Shown here: positions 41,806-62,340 of the stretch, piece after piece
Layout of the letters: every line of letters starts with the position of its first letter
How positions within the stretch are numbered: the stretch's first letter is position 1
Assembly (NCBI RefSeq): GCF_000381265.1
Contig: NZ_KB906254.1
Coordinates: forward strand, 248,001-312,000
Direction: 5' to 3'
Source: Curvibacter lanceolatus ATCC 14669
Lineage (GTDB): Bacteria; Pseudomonadota; Gammaproteobacteria; Burkholderiales; Burkholderiaceae_C
Length of the DNA: 64,000 nt
Translations under genes and position numbers: made by a program
Notes under the pieces: generated by a model
Database searches by the model: none
What the model saw: only the letters and a program-made list of their open reading frames with translations
What the model was told of the DNA's origin: nothing

Positions 41806-41952
41806 GCGTCATTCTGGTCTGCCAGACGCCAACTTCAAGTGTCTCTTTGATAGGAAATGTAAAGCGCCTACCGTCCAAGGCCCTGCCATGGGCCCGGATC
41901 ATCAAACTGGGGAGCGCGCCTCGAACCGGCTGGGCCTGCGTTCAAGGATTGG

Positions 41953-42026
41953 CCTGCCCGACAGGAATCGAACCTGTGACCCACAGCTTAGAAGGCTGTT
42001 GCTCTATCCAACTGAGCTACGGGCAG
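41953..42026 (-). tRNA. tRNA-Arg (anticodon TCT)
   Basis: A full cloverleaf reads on the minus strand: acceptor CTGCCCG/CGGGCAG, D-arm GCTCAGTTGGATAGAGC, anticodon loop CTTCTAA with TCT (41990-41992 on the plus strand), T-loop TTCGATT. CCA is encoded at 41950-41952. The prophage integrase lies 109 bases from its 5' end, making this the likely integration target. Confidence 0.95.
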
Positions 42027-42134
42027 TCGCATGGATACTGCGTTTCGCGCTACGGTTTGTGTAGCGCTTTCCGACGCGCATCGGAAAGGATTCCAGCGCG
42101 CCCCGGATTATGCCCTCGAAACTGGCGCGATTTG
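42027..42134. other. Probable prophage attachment region
   Basis: 107 bases between the tRNA 5' end and the integrase stop. One att site should lie here or within the tRNA gene. The partner copy is beyond the right edge, so the core cannot be defined from this window. Confidence 0.4.
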
Positions 42135-43151
42135 CTACTTTGTCGGGCCCACGATCTTGCCCCGACGCAGGTAGTGGCGCTTGGTCGTGGAGACGTTCGC
42201 ATGGCCCAAAAGATCGGCCGCGCTCTGTTCCCCCCGGGCGTCAGCGGTGTCGTCAGCAGCTTTGGCGCGAAGGTCATACAGCCAGGCTTCTTTGATGGCG
42301 TCGGCCAAATCTGGGTTGGCTTCGGCTGCTGCACTGCGGGCATCTTCAAAGCCTTTTCGGATCATCTGCTTGGACATGGGCTTCCCTCGGTCAGAAACCA
42401 GCAAGTAAGAGGTCCAGGTCTTGTGCGTTTCCTTTCGGGCATTGATCCGCTTGATCAGGGCCGCCAGCTCACCCTCAATTCGGATGCGCACCATGGTTCC
42501 CGTCTTCCCCTGGCGGGTTGGAATCGTCCCATCTGCGATGTCTTCATCCGTCATCGCGCGGGAATCTGATGGGCGCTGGCCGGTCAGGTAGGCCAGGTCC
42601 ATGGCATCGCGGATCGGCGCTGTGGCGCAGTCCCAAATGGCCTTAAAAACCTGATCGGTGACGTAGACCTCGCGCTTGCCCACGGCAAGGCCCCGCACTC
42701 CCGTGGCGGGGTTTTCCTTGTCGGTGTAGCCCCAGGCCCTGGCTCGGTTGAACATGGCGCTGAACAGCCGCTTCAGGCGGTTGGCAGTCTGGGGTTTGGT
42801 GCGGTGCTTCTCCAGCAGCTTGGCAATGTGGGATGGCTTTATCGCGTCCAGTGGAGCTGGGGAGGGCTTGCCGAAGAAGTCACGCAGGTGCTTGATGTCG
42901 TACTTCTGGGTTGCCTGGGTTGATGTGGCCAGCAAGGGGAGGGCCTCGCGTTCGTACTTTTCGATCACATCAATGAAGGTGGCGCCGTGCTGGACGTTGG
43001 CTTTTGTCAGCTCGGCCCATTTCTGGACAGCCAGGATGTAGTCGCTACCCAGGGGGATCTGCTTTCTGTCTTCGATCTCGAGGTAGTAATAGATCCGCCC
43101 GGAGCGCTGCTTTTTGGCTCGGAGGCCAGGGGTCGGTAAGCGCTTTGGCAT
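42135..43151 (-). CDS. int: Prophage tyrosine integrase
   Basis: 338 residues. An N-terminal arm-binding region (KKQRSGRIYYYLEIEDRKQI) and a SAM-like core-binding domain precede the catalytic domain. That domain shows Arg in LTGQRPSD, the YDLRAKAADD box (Tyr in place of the usual His) and GHANVSTTKRHY with the nucleophilic Tyr. It recombines phage and host att sites. Its position next to tRNA-Arg marks the left end of the prophage. Confidence 0.94.
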   Translation of the reverse strand: MPKRLPTPGLRAKKQRSGRIYYYLEIEDRKQIPLGSDYILAVQKWAELTKANVQHGATFIDVIEKYEREALPLLATSTQATQKYDIKHLRDFFGKPSPAPLDAIKPSHIAKLLEKHRTKPQTANRLKRLFSAMFNRARAWGYTDKENPATGVRGLAVGKREVYVTDQVFKAIWDCATAPIRDAMDLAYLTGQRPSDSRAMTDEDIADGTIPTRQGKTGTMVRIRIEGELAALIKRINARKETHKTWTSYLLVSDRGKPMSKQMIRKGFEDARSAAAEANPDLADAIKEAWLYDLRAKAADDTADARGEQSAADLLGHANVSTTKRHYLRRGKIVGPTK

Positions 43152-54833: not shown

Positions 54834-55538
54834 TTAGTCGGGTAGATACCCGCGACCCTCACAAGCCTTGCAGCATTCCTGCTTAGGTTTGCAAGCCGGA
54901 TCCATGCTGGGGCGGTACTCTGTCAGACCTGTGCCGTCGCAGTGGATGCAGGGGGTGGGATCTGGTTCGTCGGGCTGCGGGGTGGAAAGCAGGGAAGCCA
55001 GCGCATCGCGGTCTTTCCAACCCTTTGCATCACAAGGCGCATTGGCTGGAACAGGGGTGAACCAGACGGTGAGTTTTGGGATGTGGTGCTGCGCTGTATC
55101 GTCCCAGTCGAATCCTGCATCTGTCCGCGTCACGCCCTCCGGCACGGCTTGCCGTGTCGGCGGCTGCGGGGATCGACCAGGCCAAGGCCGGAGAAACCGG
55201 ACAACGTCGCTGACGTGGTTGTCAATTGCGCTGCCATCCTCGTAGCCCATCCTTCTTTGATGAGCGATGACAAGACCTACGGTGGCACTCAGCAGATCGC
55301 ACGCTTGCATCAGTGCGGCATCAGGTTTGCTCAGCGCCTCCACCTGTGCCTTTGCTGCGGCCAGCTCGGCATCAACAGCAGCGAGACGGCGGAGTTCGAC
55401 AGCCAAAAATCTGGCGTTGTCGAATGCACGGTTGCGCTGTTCTGCAGAAACAGCGCCCGCGTACTTCCCAGCGCCGTGGTCATACAGGCATTCATTGATC
55501 TGGCTGAGTGCAGTCGCGATCTTTTGTTCGATGCTCAT
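54834..55538 (-). CDS. Phage protein with DnaJ-type zinc motifs at C-terminus
   Basis: 234 residues from MSIEQKIATALSQINECLYD. The middle part holds RTDAGFDWDDTAQHHIP. The C-terminus carries two CxxCxGxG-like motifs, CIHCDGTG and CKACEGRGY, the DnaJ zinc-ribbon pattern, without a J domain. Function unknown. It follows the DGR reverse transcriptase in the same direction, but a terminator separates them. Confidence 0.7.
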   Translation of the reverse strand: MSIEQKIATALSQINECLYDHGAGKYAGAVSAEQRNRAFDNARFLAVELRRLAAVDAELAAAKAQVEALSKPDAALMQACDLLSATVGLVIAHQRRMGYEDGSAIDNHVSDVVRFLRPWPGRSPQPPTRQAVPEGVTRTDAGFDWDDTAQHHIPKLTVWFTPVPANAPCDAKGWKDRDALASLLSTPQPDEPDPTPCIHCDGTGLTEYRPSMDPACKPKQECCKACEGRGYLPD

Positions 55539-55554
55539 CTGTCTTGCTCCCATG

Positions 55555-55576
55555 AAAAAAGCCACGCGTGGGTGGC
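55555..55576 (-). terminator. Intrinsic terminator after the DGR reverse transcriptase
   Basis: GCCAC (55561-55565) pairs with GTGGC (55572-55576); on the minus strand a T-run follows at 55560-55555. It closes the DGR transcript 13 bases after the reverse transcriptase stop. Confidence 0.75.
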
Positions 55577-55588
55577 CTGTTTGACGAT

Positions 55589-56767
55589 TTATGGGTGTTT
55601 TCGAAACACCTTGGTGAGGTTCTTTCCCTCGACCGTGTGGCCCCGCTTTCGCAGGGCGTTGGTGATCAGGGCTTGATCGTGGTGGCTGTGACTTGCCTGC
55701 CGGGCAAGGCCCAGGTAGCTGTTGCCCGTGGCGAATGTGTCGGCATCCGGCACGGTTCGGATCCGCTCCAGGGCAGTTCGCATCGTTCGCGGCCTGGTGG
55801 TGCGGCGCCATGGCTTGATCAGATGGCCTACAAAGTCGATCCCGCGATCAATTGGCTGAAGGATCGTCTTCGTCGGGTTGAGCCTGGCGCCCAGGCGTGC
55901 AGGCAGAAACGCGTCGATCCGCTTCAGCGCGGCATTCAGGTGCTGTGGCGACTCGTGCAAGATCACGAAGTCATCGACATACCGCACGTAGTGCCTGGCC
56001 TTGAGCTGGTGTTTGCAGAACTGATCCAAGGCATCCAGGTGCACGTTGGCGAAGAACTGGCTGCTCAGGTTTCCGATGGGCAAACCGGTGTCTGACGGCG
56101 CATTGAACAGGCTCTTGTGCGGTGGCACCTTTGCCAGCAAGTCAGGGCGCCCCCGGACCTCAACGTCCATGCGCGGGTCATGAAACAGAATCTTGCGTGC
56201 CAGCGACAGCCAGAATGGCTCATGGACATGTCGGGCCAGCTGATCGAACAAAACATGCTTGTCGATGGCCACGAAGAAGTTTGCAAGGTCCATCTTCAGA
56301 TAGAAGGCCTGTCGGCTCCAGTTCTGGGTGATGGACCTCACGGCGTGCTCCAGGCGCTGCGCCGCATACAGCGTTCCGCGACCGGGTATGCAAGCGCTGC
56401 TCCCGGCATCAAACCGCGCATAGAAGCGTGAGCTGATGTGGTTGTAGAGCAGGTGGTGCACGACCCGATCACGGAACTTGGCCGCCCAAACTTCCCTGGT
56501 CTTCGGCCTGGTGATCACAAAACAAATGGAGCGGCCCGGCTGATAGGCGCCGCTGATGAGGTCCTCGTGGAGATCAAACAGGTTGCTCTCCAGGTGGGCC
56601 TCGAATTCGAGTGCACTTGCGGTGTTGCGTTTGCTTCGACGGCAGTCGAGGTACGCACGCACCAGCGGTTCGAAAAGGTTTGATACTGCTGACAGCCCGG
56701 GCCCTGAACTCGTTGTTCTGATGGTTGTTGTTCTGGTTGCCGTTGTTGAAGTTCTGATTCCATGCAT
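55589..56767 (-). CDS. DGR reverse transcriptase
   Basis: Up to 392 residues from the ATG at 56767, which lies inside the template repeat; a GTG at 56662 would give 357 residues. RT similarity starts near NLFEPLVRAYLDCRRSKR. Motifs: YLKMDLANFFVAID (catalytic Asp), LPIGNLSSQFFANV (the IGNxxSQ motif of DGR enzymes) and YVRYVDDFVIL. It copies the template RNA with errors at adenines to rewrite the target genes. A frame open to 56914 shows no RT similarity in its first part. The order avd-template-RT matches the Bordetella phage BPP-1 cassette. Confidence 0.93.
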   Translation of the reverse strand: MHGIRTSTTATRTTTIRTTSSGPGLSAVSNLFEPLVRAYLDCRRSKRNTASALEFEAHLESNLFDLHEDLISGAYQPGRSICFVITRPKTREVWAAKFRDRVVHHLLYNHISSRFYARFDAGSSACIPGRGTLYAAQRLEHAVRSITQNWSRQAFYLKMDLANFFVAIDKHVLFDQLARHVHEPFWLSLARKILFHDPRMDVEVRGRPDLLAKVPPHKSLFNAPSDTGLPIGNLSSQFFANVHLDALDQFCKHQLKARHYVRYVDDFVILHESPQHLNAALKRIDAFLPARLGARLNPTKTILQPIDRGIDFVGHLIKPWRRTTRPRTMRTALERIRTVPDADTFATGNSYLGLARQASHSHHDQALITNALRKRGHTVEGKNLTKVFRKHP

Positions 56768-56782
56768 AGGAAGGCGAGGACT
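56686..56782 (-). repeat. DGR template repeat (TR)
   Basis: 97 bases. Read on the minus strand in the target frame it encodes SPSYAWNQNFNNGNQNNNHQ then NNEFRARAV, rich in AAC codons. Each variable repeat matches it over the same 97 bases except at A positions. It lies between avd and the reverse-transcriptase region. Its GC-rich end (GGGCCCGGGCTGTCAGCAG) is shared with both targets and would be the homing start; the bases just beyond differ (TAT versus ATT). Confidence 0.95.
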
Positions 56783-56952
56783 GAGGATTGCACTATCTAC
56801 GTCGCCCCGGCGAAGGCTGCTGCCGATCACTGGAGAAACTGCGCCAGACCTGCGCGCCTGGGGCGGTGGTATCTGTGGTGCGCTTGGCGGTGCCCTTGTG
56901 GGGCAGCGGTGCAACCAGATTCAAAATTCGCACAGGCATGAGGCCTTGACAC

Positions 56953-57318
56953 TCATGCGGCGGGCGACCTATTCGATGCTGACTTGAGCCATCCACCGCC
57001 CTGCTTGCCGATGCTGCCAAGCAGAGAAACCGATTCGGCCCACAGCTTGTGTGAGATGTATCGGCTGTCATGGCTGACGCGCAAGAGCACCGTGATGGCG
57101 CGGAGGTGCGTCATCAAGGCCCGGATGTGCGCCGCCCGTTCTCCGTGCTTGGTGGCATTCGCCAGCGCCATCAGATCCAACATCTCGACGCAGTGCTGGC
57201 TGACCTTCTCGCCGAGAGACCGCTTGATCCCTCGGGGCATCTGCTCCTGAGCCTTGAAGGCCAAGGATAGAAGTTGCACGCCGGTCCGGTAGATGGGGAG
57301 GTCCGTGTGGAGACTCAT
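56953..57318 (-). CDS. avd: DGR accessory variability determinant (Avd-like)
   Basis: 121 residues predicted to be all-helical, with the four-helix-bundle pattern of Avd/S23-like proteins: VQLLSLAFKAQEQMPRGIKR, VSQHCVEMLDLMALANATKH, then ALMTHLRAITVLLRVS. Avd pentamers bind the reverse transcriptase and template RNA and are needed for mutagenic homing in BPP-1. It starts 19 bases after the first target gene and ends about 170 bases before the template. Confidence 0.85.
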   Translation of the reverse strand: MSLHTDLPIYRTGVQLLSLAFKAQEQMPRGIKRSLGEKVSQHCVEMLDLMALANATKHGERAAHIRALMTHLRAITVLLRVSHDSRYISHKLWAESVSLLGSIGKQGGGWLKSASNRSPAA

Positions 57319-57337
57319 GACTCAAAGGACTGAAGGA

Positions 57338-57790
57338 TCAAATGAACAATCTGCTGACAGCCCGGGCCCTGAACTCGCTGCCCTGATGGCCGTGGCCCTG
57401 GCTGCCGGAGCCGAAGCCCTGACCCCATGCACAGGAAGGCGAGGACTCGTGCTGCTCGCCAGACCAGTACCAAGCTTCCTTGAATTCGCCCTTCAAGTTG
57501 GCGAACAGTAGGGATTGCTCTTGGCGGGTGGGAAGCTCGCCACCAGCCTTGGCCGCCCAGGCCTTGGCATCGGCCCAGTTGACCTCTTCAGCCTCGCCGG
57601 GCAAAAGGATCAGGTGATGGCTGGGAGAGCCGTCATCCTTCAGGACCAAACCCGCATACTGCTGGCCTGGCTTGAGTTCGATATGGGATTCGGGAATGTG
57701 AAAGAAGGTTGGTGCCGATTGTTTGAGTTCGGCAATCATGCGAGCTAGCTTCACCTGCTCGGCTTCGAGTTGTTCAATGGTCAGGGACAT
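57338..57790 (-). CDS. DGR target protein 1 (DUF1566/C-type-lectin-like variable protein)
   Basis: 150 residues from MSLTIEQLEAEQVKLARMIA, preceded by a GGAG site. A short N-terminal coiled segment is followed by a domain with VNWADAKAWAAKAGGELPTR, LLFANLKGEF and YWSGEQHE, then the variable C-terminus SSPSCAWGQGFGSGSQGHGH. Its last 32 codons carry the variable repeat. The fold resembles lectin-like proteins diversified by DGRs. Paralogous to target 2. It is not an obvious tail protein and lacks a signal peptide. Confidence 0.88.
   Translation of the reverse strand: MSLTIEQLEAEQVKLARMIAELKQSAPTFFHIPESHIELKPGQQYAGLVLKDDGSPSHHLILLPGEAEEVNWADAKAWAAKAGGELPTRQEQSLLFANLKGEFKEAWYWSGEQHESSPSCAWGQGFGSGSQGHGHQGSEFRARAVSRLFI
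57351..57447 (-). repeat. DGR variable repeat 1 (VR1)
   Basis: 97 bases at the 3' end of target 1. It differs from the template at 18 positions, all template A: 15 A-to-G, two A-to-C and one A-to-T. All non-A positions match. Confidence 0.95.
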
Positions 57791-57813
57791 TGGGTACTCC
57801 GGAGTTAAAGGAT

Positions 57814-58215
57814 TCAAGAATTGATCGGAAATCTGCTGACAGCCCGGGCCCTGAACTCGTCGTCCTGACGGTTGCCGTCCTGGCCGCCGCCGCCGAAGTC
57901 CTGACCCCATGCATAGGAAGGCGAGGACTGGTAGACCGTGCCCGTCCAATACCACTCGTCCAGGTCGAACTGGTCGCGCAGATTGGCGTAGAGCAGGGCG
58001 CTTTCAAAGCGCGTCGGCAGGCGGGCGCCGTTGCCCAGGCTTTCGGCCCAGGCCTTGGCGTCCTTCCAGGTCAGGTCTTCTTCTGGCTTGGCAGAAAGCA
58101 GCACCAGGTGGCCATCAGGCTCACCGTTCTCGCCGCGAGAAACGCCGGCATAGATGCCGTCAATTGCGCCGGGCCACTTGGCTCCGATGCATGGTGCTTG
58201 GAGTTGGTTGTCCAT
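57814..58215 (-). CDS. DGR target protein 2 (DUF1566/C-type-lectin-like variable protein)
   Basis: 133 residues from MDNQLQAPCIGAKWPGAIDG after a strong AGGAGA site; a longer frame to 58344 lacks support. Core: LTWKDAKAWAESLGNGARLP then FESALLYANL and YWTGTVYQ, aligned with target 1. The variable end is SSPSYAWGQDFGGGGQDGNR. The stop lies 23 bases before the target 1 start, so the targets are co-transcribed with avd and probably the RT. Confidence 0.88.
   Translation of the reverse strand: MDNQLQAPCIGAKWPGAIDGIYAGVSRGENGEPDGHLVLLSAKPEEDLTWKDAKAWAESLGNGARLPTRFESALLYANLRDQFDLDEWYWTGTVYQSSPSYAWGQDFGGGGQDGNRQDDEFRARAVSRFPINS
57833..57929 (-). repeat. DGR variable repeat 2 (VR2)
   Basis: 97 bases at the 3' end of target 2. 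It differs from the template at 15 positions, all template A, all A-to-G. The match ends at the same GC-rich segment and shares AATCTGCTGAC (plus strand) with VR1 just outside. Confidence 0.95.
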
Positions 58216-58235
58216 GGGTTCTCCTGTTGATGGAC

Positions 58236-58261
58236 GAAAAAAATCCCGGGCTTGCCGGGAT
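58236..58261 (-). terminator. Intrinsic terminator upstream of the DGR cassette
   Basis: ATCCCGG (58243-58249) pairs with CCGGGAT (58255-58261) over GCTTG; a run of A on the plus-strand left gives a minus-strand T-tail. It would reduce read-through into the DGR targets. Confidence 0.75.
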
Positions 58262-58286
58262 GGGAGGAAAGGGTGGAGCGGGTAGA

Positions 58287-58619
58287 TCAAAGCTGACCAT
58301 CCCGGTATTCGTTGACCAGCCTGATGAAGCGGGCCGGCTGCCACTTGACCCAGTCAAGCAGCGTTGCTTTCATGTCGCGCATGGCCTTGTCGCGGGTGTC
58401 GCCATCCTTGAGGACGATGCGCGGACCCAGCTCCTGCAACATGGCCTCACCGTACCGGTCCCAAAGTTCGCGCGCCTCGGCCTTGTTGGCCTTGAGCTTG
58501 GCGCCGAGTTCTTTGGCCTTGGCCCTATCTGCAGCGGCTTGCCGGACCTTGTACTTGTCCAGCTCGGAATTGATGGTGCTGGTACGGCCAGGAATGTTGA
58601 GCGTGCCGTGATCAAGCAT
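58287..58619 (-). CDS. Hypothetical phage protein
   Basis: 110 residues, strongly helical and charged (AAADRAKAKELGAKLKANKA; RELWDRYGEAMLQELGP). It is the first confident gene of the leftward phage operon. No family recognised. An AGGAG-like site precedes the ATG. Confidence 0.68.
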   Translation of the reverse strand: MLDHGTLNIPGRTSTINSELDKYKVRQAAADRAKAKELGAKLKANKAEARELWDRYGEAMLQELGPRIVLKDGDTRDKAMRDMKATLLDWVKWQPARFIRLVNEYRDGQL

Positions 58620-58633
58620 TACGGACTCCTTTG

Positions 58634-58670
58634 AAAACCTGAACCCCCTCAGTGAAGGCGCTCAGGTTTT
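58634..58670. terminator. Hairpin in the leftward leader
   Basis: AAAACCTGA (58634-58642) pairs perfectly with TCAGGTTTT (58662-58670). It lies about 15 bases upstream of the first leftward gene and could stop transcripts unless antiterminated. Confidence 0.55.
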
Positions 58671-59164
58671 GCCCCTCTTGCGAAGGGCTACCGGTTACGT
58701 CGATCCGGCGGTATTGCACCCGTGTTCAGGCCCAAGCTATGACGCTCTGAGGCGACGTGAAATCTTTGGCGGCGTCCTCTGGTGTACGCAGGGCGGGCAC
58801 TCCTGCAACCATCAGCCAACTGGGAACCCGTGCCGTCTTTCGTGCGGCTCTCACGATTGGGTTTTGGCCGGGTCATCCGGCTAGGTCTCTCGCATGTGTT
58901 CTCCTTCGCAGCGCCTGGCCGCATTGGTCTTCGGGCTTCTGCTGAAACCCGACTGCAAACGTCGTATCAAGGACCCCCTCGACAGTGTTTGCTGCTGATC
59001 TCTCTCTCCATTGACCATCGGTCCATGGATCGCCCCAGCATTGCCTCGCAACTTCCGGCGTGCTTGCCTCCATCCCTCATGCCTGCTTTCGCATCCCCGG
59101 ACCACCGAATGTCCCTGGTCAACCCGCCGTGTGGATCAGGCGGTGCAGCTTTCGCTGCGGCATG
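58671..59164 (-). other. Long leader between the leftward promoter and first gene
   Basis: Nearly 500 bases with no confident gene. A minus-strand frame at 58881-59105 (GTG start) would encode 74 residues with an Arg-rich part (ESRHEGWRQARRKLRG); another at 58688-58924 (ATG) encodes an Arg-rich 78-mer. Either could be an N-like antiterminator, or the region may act as RNA. Not proven. Confidence 0.35.
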
Positions 59165-61722: not shown

Positions 61723-62340
61723 CTATCGGTAACGCTTCTCCACTGATCGAAGAACGCCAATTATTCGACTATCGCCCAGAAGCTTTATTGGGTAGCGAGG
61801 ATTGAGCGGCTTCAAATACCACTCCGTACCATCTTTTACGAGTTGCTTGAATGTGGTTTCGTCACCGCCATTTTTTGCGATAACGAAATCACCAGGAAGC
61901 GGATCGAGTTCGGGCTCAATGATCAGCACCATGCCCTCAGTGAACTCAGGCTCCATGCTGTCACCTGTGACGCGCAGGGCGAAGGTGTAGCGGTTGACGG
62001 GTACCGACGTGGAGATCATCTCCATGCCGCCATCGCCGGGGTGGAAGTTATCTACGTGCTCTGTGAACGATCCAGCTTGGACGCTTGAAATCAATGGAAC
62101 CTCTCCCCTGATGTTTGGGCCTGGCGCAGTATTCGCGCTGCCGTCTCCCGTCATCAGTTGAGCTACCGAGATACCAAGCACGTCAGCAACTGCCTGCTGA
62201 CGCTTTCGTGCGGGGGCTGTTCCGCCCTCTCGCTCCCATTGCTGAACCGTTGCGCGGGTGACACCGCAGAGCTTCGCGAATGCTTCTTCGGTAAGTGCGA
62301 GGCGTGCGCGCCCCTCTCTGATTAGCTTGTGAATGCTCAT
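61723..62340 (-). CDS. cI: CI-type phage repressor with S24 autopeptidase
   Basis: 205 residues. N-terminal HTH (LTEEAFAKLCGVTRATVQQW), linker with an Ala-Gly cleavage site (SVQAGSF), and the S24 domain with nucleophile Ser in RVTGDSMEPEF and the Lys in TTFKQLVKDG. It should hold the prophage silent and be cut on RecA activation. The 15-bp GATAG-N5-CTATC sites in front of this gene and at 59.2 kb are its likely operators. Confidence 0.93.
   Translation of the reverse strand: MSIHKLIREGRARLALTEEAFAKLCGVTRATVQQWEREGGTAPARKRQQAVADVLGISVAQLMTGDGSANTAPGPNIRGEVPLISSVQAGSFTEHVDNFHPGDGGMEMISTSVPVNRYTFALRVTGDSMEPEFTEGMVLIIEPELDPLPGDFVIAKNGGDETTFKQLVKDGTEWYLKPLNPRYPIKLLGDSRIIGVLRSVEKRYR

What the first reader, a model, noticed from the sequence alone, without database searches (positions are those of the whole stretch)
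55589..58215. Complete diversity-generating retroelement in a prophage
Reverse transcriptase with IGNLSSQ and YVDD motifs, an Avd-like protein, an AAC-rich template repeat and two target genes with C-terminal variable repeats all lie together on the minus strand. Both variable repeats match the template over exactly 97 bases and differ only at template adenines. This is the signature of mutagenic homing.
Basis: partly seen in the sequence, partly recalled or inferred. Interest (0 to 1): 0.95.

Follow-up and report, generated by a model that had tools for sequence, protein, structure and literature searches.

The report
Phage hypermutation cassette, rewired template RNA
This prophage carries a complete protein-diversifying retroelement of a known kind, but in its family a structured RNA of unknown role sits in front of the template, where the textbook case has one behind it, and pairs with the template's far end.

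Summary
TR 56686-56782 differs from VR1 (57351-57447) at 18 positions and from VR2 (57833-57929) at 15, all 33 at TR adenines. RT, Avd and two lectin-type targets belong to the DGR kind, in a prophage of about 60.6 kb. Near-identical relatives with the same TR differ in their VRs almost only at TR adenines, so the family has been active recently.

That is a new member of a known kind. The family looks like a new variant. The Rfam orphan RT-15 (RF03018) lies between avd and TR; all 10 distinct over-cutoff hits of an RT-independent search, window included, adjoin a TR. In BPP-1 the structured RNA (RF03022) is 3' of TR. RT-15's unpaired conserved strand covaries with the TR 3' end (one pair: 97% paired, 44% shuffled, 52% at the VR site). 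The RT frame runs out of the TR in 104 of 107 representatives. I propose that RT-15 clamps the template loop, positions RT-Avd and supplies the internal primer. Helix and frame are comparative results; priming is inferred. In the window's own copy the helix has two mismatches and the RT start is unresolved.

The parts
57817..58215 (-). Target 1, 133 aa, C-type-lectin fold, VR2 at C-terminus
   Evidence: ORF; AlphaFold pLDDT 95.1, pTM 0.88; best PDB match 8q4e Legionella Lcl C-terminal domain, E 6.7e-6, TM 0.70
57833..57929 (-). VR2
   Evidence: 15 mismatches to TR, all at TR adenines
57341..57790 (-). Target 2, 150 aa, VR1 at C-terminus
   Evidence: ORF; weak Lcl_C and FGE-sulfatase matches below Pfam cut-offs; 48% identical to target 1 over 110 residues (copy in L011)
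57351..57447 (-). VR1
   Evidence: 18 mismatches to TR, all at TR adenines
56953..57318 (-). avd, 121 aa
   Evidence: Pfam bAvd 6.2e-12 over cut-off; PHROG 3206 1.1e-23
56781..56969 (-). RT-15 RNA (Rfam RF03018), overlapping the end of avd and adjoining TR
   Evidence: 170.5 bits, gathering 82, E 1.8e-42, full-length
56916..56922 (-). RT-15 single-stranded segment GAAUCUG, proposed partner of the TR 3' end
   Evidence: position; family covariation
56686..56782 (-). Template repeat (TR), 97 nt, 31 adenines
56682..56688 (-). Last 3 nt of TR and the 4 nt after it, CAGUAUC, proposed helix strand; two central mismatches to GAAUCUG in this copy
55589..56674 (-). Conserved RT core (IGNLSSQ, YVDD); the frame is open upstream through TR to 56914, true start unresolved
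42138..43151 (-). Prophage integrase
   Evidence: PHROG 1 integrase 8.3e-38
41986..42028 (.). attL-like 43-bp repeat overlapping tRNA-Arg (41950-42026); second copy 38.6 kb beyond the window end
61726..62340 (-). CI-like repressor
   Evidence: PHROG 4 transcriptional repressor 3.1e-44

Best explanation
A diversity-generating retroelement in the lysogeny/early arm of a prophage with contractile-tail genes. SHOWN by sequence or comparison: RT, Avd, TR and two small lectin-type targets whose VRs differ from TR only at adenines; relatives have diversified recently; the structured RNA of this family is RT-15, 5' of TR; an unpaired RT-15 strand covaries, as a helix would, with the 3' end of TR, so that TR would be a loop of about 100 nt held at both ends by RT-15; the RT reading frame runs through at least the TR 3' end. 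INFERRED: the avd-RT-15-TR-rt transcript binds RT and Avd through RT-15; the helix places the TR 3' end at the active site and a 2'-OH at the junction (by analogy with the internal adenine of the BPP-1 spacer) primes cDNA; RT-15 also stops synthesis at the TR 5' edge; adenine-mutagenised cDNA then replaces either VR. By eye the two target proteins show no signal peptide or membrane segment; they are encoded on the opposite strand from the tail-fibre genes and about 30 kb or more away, so their ligand is unknown.
For: DGR anatomy. Activity: (L075/L006; L030/L031 with 1 RT difference in 900 nt and 17 VR differences, all at A, flank 0/91; L148/L149 with identical RT and one VR differing by 10, all at A, flank 0/200). 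RT-15: in the window; an RT-independent search gave 9 of 399 genomes of the order, 1 of 369 of the class (the window itself) and 3 of 398 of the phylum over the cut-off, 0 of 14 controls, and all 10 distinct hits, window included, adjoin a TR and this RT. Contrast: BPP-1 avd 2294-2680, TR 2681-2814, then 144 nt to brt, with RF03022 'Phage_DGR' at 2819-2951. Helix: 113 of 115 representatives usable; pair 6 (counted from 0) 97.3% standard pairs against shuffle mean 43.7% (0 of 2000), types C-G 50, G-C 38, U-A 11, A-U 8, U-G 3; in-register mean 0.894 against 0.23-0.43 when slid by -2, -1, +1, +2, +3; at least 14 changes on the RT tree; homologous VR site only 51.5%; 68 further representatives: pair 6 91.2% against shuffle mean 71.9%, maximum 80.9%; four loci of one diverged subclade changed both strands and keep 7 of 8 pairs (read by eye). 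Frame: TR end to RT core congruent in 104 of 107, later 66 of 68. No extra synonymous constraint at the RT 5' end, so no sign of a 3' spacer hidden in the gene.
Against: In the window's own copy the helix has two central mismatches, and the MFE fold of the region is no better than shuffles (z 0.33) and lacks the helix. Pairs 0-4 hardly vary and say little. Pair 5 is often A-C (30 of 113; 31 of 68) and is not supported in the second sample (0.309 against 0.277), where pair 8 is not supported either. Pair 7 is weak in the first sample (41 of 2000 shuffles reach it). A single-sequence complementarity search does not pick out the window's helix, and in the two canonical relatives tried it is the top match but 7 and 4 of 60 shuffles score as well. 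The tree-based independent-pair tests rest on few pairs (median p 0.06 and 0.03). Priming and termination have no direct evidence. The BPP-1-type hairpin downstream of VR is absent in the window (arms of 3 and 4 bp; BPP-1 8) and rare in the family (arm of 7 or more in 13 of 231 VRs, though shuffles give 0.5%).
Confidence: 0.8

Rival explanations
1. The helix between RT-15 and the TR end is a translation switch: it hides or exposes the RT reading frame, separating RNA used as template from RNA used as mRNA, and does not prime cDNA.
For: RT-15 carries an ATG, preceded by AAGG/GAGG-like sequences in many relatives; it is in frame with RT in 71 of 88 representatives that have it and open through TR in 68, again 37 of 46 in frame in the second sample. 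The helix partner lies where the RT frame leaves the TR.
Against: The ATG is lost or out of frame in many members (108 sites found in 115 representatives: 88 ATG, 17 of these out of frame), among them the window (AAG, frame shifted), while the paired positions persist in such members as L006 and L015. The covariation is with TR and not with VR, as a priming element should show.
Confidence: 0.3
2. An ordinary BPP-1-type DGR in which RT-15 is only a 5' leader for stability or for stopping cDNA, with priming from an unrecognised 3' element inside the RT gene.
For: In BPP-1 a motif at the end of avd, 5' of TR, ends reverse transcription (PMC12875486, passages).
Against: Only about 7-43 nt separate TR from the conserved RT core in relatives with RT identity of 60% or more (best VR of each locus), and RT codons there show no extra synonymous constraint (ratios 1.11, 1.17, 1.04, 1.06; elsewhere 0.92-1.25). 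RF03022 was not found in 55000-59000 at E 0.1.
Confidence: 0.2
3. A decayed DGR: the window copy is no longer active.
For: RT-15 ATG changed to AAG with a frame shift, helix with two mismatches, no second strain to compare.
Against: RT and Avd frames are open and complete; VR1 and VR2 are different variants, both in frame and with adenine-only changes, so homing did occur.
Confidence: 0.12

Closest known systems
BPP-1 DGR of Bordetella phage (mtd-avd-TR-sp-brt)
   Same: RT signature IGxxxSQ/YxDD, Avd, TR upstream of RT, VR at the C-terminal end of the target gene; adenine-specific changes and lectin fold of Mtd are recalled or from papers
   Different: BPP-1 has TR directly after avd and a 144-nt structured spacer (RF03022) 3' of TR, a hairpin after VR and a tail-protein target. 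Here the structured RNA (RT-15) is 5' of TR, no 3' spacer or hairpin was found, and two small targets lie outside the tail region.
Burkholderia phage Magia DGR (MT701587, PMC7883833)
   Same: Same family, also between integrase and repressor; RT 62.8% identical; authors report a potential DGR with target sequences in genes 47 and 57 (passages read)
   Different: The passages read (terms retroelement, Avd, lectin, template) speak of no RNA. My scan finds VRs at three places in the stretch held: in gene 47, in gene 57 and in gene 46.
RT-15 RNA (Rfam RF03018)
   Same: Window match of 170.5 bits over the full model
   Different: Listed only as 'RT-15 RNA', type 'Gene; sRNA'; the model stops at the TR, so its conserved AAUCUGG is unpaired in it
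Pseudomonas phages Haboob, Cruim01, phPA-G, LPPA56
   Same: Same cassette order; two VRs each in the stretches held; RT 61-66% identical
   Different: In the stretches shown, none of the four records marks TR or VRs; Cruim01 annotates RT-15 as misc_RNA and phPA-G an 'Avd protein of DGR'

Membership tests
Diversity-generating retroelement | RT of the DGR type | tested here: met
   PHROG 1423, PDB 8ub7 best match, IGNLSSQ/YVDD shared with BPP-1 and not with two group II-like RTs; no outgroup tree
Diversity-generating retroelement | TR and VR nearly identical, differing at TR adenines | tested here: met
   33 of 33 mismatches
Diversity-generating retroelement | VR at the C-terminus of a C-type-lectin-fold (or Ig-like) protein | tested here: met
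   target 1 modelled; target 2 by sequence similarity only
Diversity-generating retroelement | Avd or other accessory protein | tested here: met
   NCBIfam below cut-off
Diversity-generating retroelement | Mutagenic retrohoming observed | not testable with these tools
   Indirect: recent divergence, almost only at TR adenines, between near-identical relatives
BPP-1-type template RNA | Structured spacer 3' of TR | tested here: not met
   11 nt between TR and RT core (coordinates); no RF03022 match at E 0.1; no synonymous constraint
BPP-1-type target site | Hairpin/cruciform downstream of VR | tested here: not met
   arms of 3 and 4 bp; BPP-1 control 8
RT-15 RNA (RF03018) | Score above the family's gathering threshold | tested here: met
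   170.5 against 82 bits

The most novel reading that the evidence does not exclude
A second architecture of DGR template RNA: one 5' RNA (RT-15) scaffolds RT-Avd, stops cDNA at the TR 5' edge and, through a helix with the TR 3' end, supplies the internal primer, while the RT is translated through its own template. Template reading and RT synthesis then compete on one RNA.
Probability: 0.45. Interest if true: 0.78.

Novelty: new variant of a known kind. Interest (0 to 1): 0.58.

Why it matters
It gives an orphan Rfam RNA a concrete role and suggests that the structured part of a DGR template RNA can lie on the other side of the template from BPP-1, the model system. The helix, which follows TR and not VR, makes priming in a second DGR lineage directly testable.

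Tried and rejected
Artefact or chance repeat: rejected. Antiviral RT, retron or group II intron: NCBIfam matches all far below cut-offs. More targets in the host genome: none found. Hidden 3' spacer in the RT gene: no synonymous signal. Helix from single sequences: window helix not picked out, MFE fold lacks it; the case rests on covariation. Helix with the target in place of TR: rejected, the VR site pairs at 51.5% for pair 6 (shuffle mean 40.3%, maximum 50.7%, so a slight excess) against 97.3% for TR; at pair 5 the VR pairs more often than TR (0.85 against 0.66; 0.914 against 0.309). The TR/VR scan penalises non-A mismatches, so the pooled share (4633 of 4707 at A) is biased; the window comparison is fixed-length and one search compares VRs with each other, although VR bounds come from the scan. 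Rows kept: one search kept 206 of 214 loci with an RT hit, 185 of them with a VR scoring at least 55; one search kept 115 representatives of 177 loci, found the RT-15 codon in 108 and a TR end in 107; one search lined up 111 of 115 and 113 of 115; one search kept 73 of 152 new loci (51 near old, 24 near new, 4 short) and used 68. Three sub-threshold RT-15 matches (L071-L073) had no RT and are taken as chance. Seven loosely related sources: RT-15 was found in 2 (L135, L136, both just under the gathering score) and not in L057, L138, L142, L045 or BPP-1.

Papers: PMC12875486, PMC7883833, PMC3240598, PMC8144416, PMC8143477 and PMC10589994 were seen as passages only; other papers as search listings. 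PMC8143477 cites the Weinberg 2017 paper, seen only in its reference list. Weinberg 2017 and Wu 2018 are not held, so an earlier link of RT-15 to DGRs there cannot be excluded; searches listed no paper on it (one found no paper with RF03018, RF03022, 'RT-15 RNA', 'DGR RNA motif' or 'DGR template RNA'). Not used: second structure job, third fold search, host identification.
Full report
OBSERVATION. The cassette is real. On the minus strand the order is target 1 (57817-58215), target 2 (57341-57790), avd (56953-57318), TR (56686-56782), RT (to 55589). Ungapped comparison gives 18 TR/VR1 and 15 TR/VR2 mismatches, all at TR adenines (chance 1e-11 and 2e-9). In the target frame TR reads SSPSYAWNQNFNNGNQNNNHQNNEFRARAVS; in the VRs most of its asparagines have become G, S, D or H. 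A DNA search found no further VR in the host genome.

PROTEINS. RT: PHROG 1423 (1.4e-112) and Pfam RVT_1; best solved relative 8ub7 'Reverse transcriptase' (2.6e-37), ahead of a group II-type RT (6ar1, 1.3e-9). Avd: Pfam bAvd over its cut-off and PHROG 3206; the NCBIfam Avd model matches below its cut-off. Target 1 models at pLDDT 95.1 (65-sequence alignment) with best match the Legionella Lcl C-terminal domain (8q4e, E 6.7e-6, the only PDB match under 0.001), then C-type lectins.

PROPHAGE. A 43-bp repeat overlapping tRNA-Arg (41986-42028) recurs at window-equivalent 102602-102644, giving a prophage of about 60.6 kb. The window holds its early/lysogeny arm: integrase, SbcC-like, RecE, RecT, DGR, CI-like repressor. 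Terminase, portal, head, sheath, baseplate and tail-fibre genes follow beyond the window on the other strand (20 of the ORFs listed were scanned). The tail-fibre matches lie about 30-37 kb from the DGR. In four related phages the cassette also lies among integrase, recombination, methylase or repressor genes.

FAMILY. RT relatives were found in named phages (119 records match, 24 of them over at least 80% of the query), in IMG/VR and in 8 loci of the genome collection. Of 206 loci with a usable RT hit, 185 have at least one VR scoring 55 or more: 25 with one, 135 with two, 25 with three. In 73 further representatives the counts are 4 with none, 21 one, 42 two, 6 three. Two targets are the norm. 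Called target ORFs have median lengths of 167 and 158 aa, some of them in wrongly called frames.

RECENT ACTIVITY. Among 62 locus pairs with RT nucleotide identity of at least 93% over up to 900 nt, 18 are identical. In 16 of the 18 the matched VRs are the same or differ by one or two bases; several of these are the same element in two collections or samples. Two show diversified VRs: L075/L006 (18 differences, 17 at A; 21, all at A; target flanks 0/200) and L148/L149 (10, all at A, flank 0/200; its other VR differs by 14, all at A, but its flank by 38). L030/L031, one difference in 900, show 17 VR differences, all at A. In the 44 pairs below identity every matched VR differs (L135/L143 had none matched), and where TR is the same, nearly all differences are at A.

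RT-15. Rfam RF03018 matches 56781-56969 with 170.5 bits, between avd and TR. To test the link without using the RT, I searched genomes with the RNA family: 9 of 399 (order), 1 of 369 (class; the window) and 3 of 398 (phylum) passed the cut-off, 0 of 14 controls did. These are 10 distinct loci, the window included; all 10 have this RT and a TR beginning within about 4 nt of the end of RT-15. A diverged subclade (RT 52-54% identical) still matches, at 105.6 and 100.5 bits and, just under the gathering score of 82, 79.9 and 77.7. BPP-1 is arranged the other way: TR follows avd at once and RF03022 'Phage_DGR' lies 3' of TR; PMC12875486 (passages) describes that spacer as the RT-Avd recruiting and priming element.

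LONG-RANGE HELIX. In the Rfam model the segment gAAUCUGG is conserved and unpaired. It can pair with the last three bases of TR and the bases after it: AAUCUG with CAGAUU. Representatives show G-C, C-G, A-U and U-A at the seventh pair, AAUCCG/CGGAUU (L017, L052, L056) and CACCUG/CAGGUG (L070). Among 113 of 115 representatives the seventh pair is standard in 97.3% against 43.7% after shuffling (0 of 2000); sliding the register drops the mean from 0.894 to 0.23-0.43. The pair changes state at least 14 times on the RT tree; independent-pair tests go one way only, but the supported pairs are few (median p 0.06 and 0.03). The homologous place in VRs pairs in 51.5%. In 68 further representatives the seventh pair holds (91.2% against mean 71.9%, maximum 80.9%) and the eighth (76.5% against 58.8%, maximum 69.1%), whereas the sixth and ninth do not exceed shuffles. 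In the diverged subclade (four loci with the same letters, so one event at most) RT-15 reads AUCAUUUGG and the TR end CACAUGAU, 7 of 8 pairs in the same register (by eye). By the model's structure line the RT-15 central stem begins one base after AAUCUG and closes about 5-7 bases before TR, so TR would be a loop between two helices that could stack (inference).

READING FRAME. No ATG, GTG or TTG lies in frame between TR and the conserved RT core in 91 of 107 representatives, yet that gap keeps frame in 104 of 107 (14 different lengths, 11 of them in frame) and in 66 of 68 later ones: the RT is read out of the TR. An ATG inside RT-15 is in frame with RT in 71 of 88 and open through TR in 68. 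In the window this codon is AAG and out of frame, so its start is unresolved (candidates).

MECHANISM. Shown by sequence and comparison: anatomy, adenine-specific changes, family activity, RT-15/TR linkage, covarying strands, frame. Inferred: RT-Avd binding to RT-15, priming from an internal 2'-OH next to the helix, stop at the TR 5' edge, VR replacement. The target-side hairpin important in BPP-1 (PMC3240598, passages) is missing in the window and rare in the family, so target recognition may also differ.

NOVELTY. As a DGR it is a known kind; Magia's authors reported a potential DGR of this family. I found no paper in the held library on RT-15 in DGRs, but key papers are not held. Hence 'new variant of a known kind'.

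Noticed in passing
window 41950-42028 and G000:C2:350602-350644 (L229): 43-bp direct repeat covering the 5' part and anticodon region of tRNA-Arg(tct), probable att sites of a prophage of about 60.6 kb.
   Followed up: partly
L004, L014, L026, L027/L058, L091, L106, L122, L189/L191: Extra VRs 3-7 kb from the TR in some relatives, mostly in small lectin-type ORFs; in Magia (L004) the distant one falls in gene 57, near the repressor.
   Followed up: partly
window 57340-57360 and 57820-57840: Both window VRs continue with ATT after the shared CAG, the usual family sequence that would pair fully with RT-15, while the window's TR has TAT; the TR may have changed after the VRs were written.
   Followed up: no
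L135, L136, L137, L143: A diverged subclade with RT-15 and both helix strands changed together.
   Followed up: partly
L023, L028, L035, L036, L039, L053, L055: In-frame TTG 8 codons before the RT core with GAGG six bases upstream, both inside the TR: a possible RT start within the template.
   Followed up: no
window 58287-58619: 110-aa ORF upstream of the targets with no Pfam, PHROGs or NCBIfam match at E 0.01.
   Followed up: no
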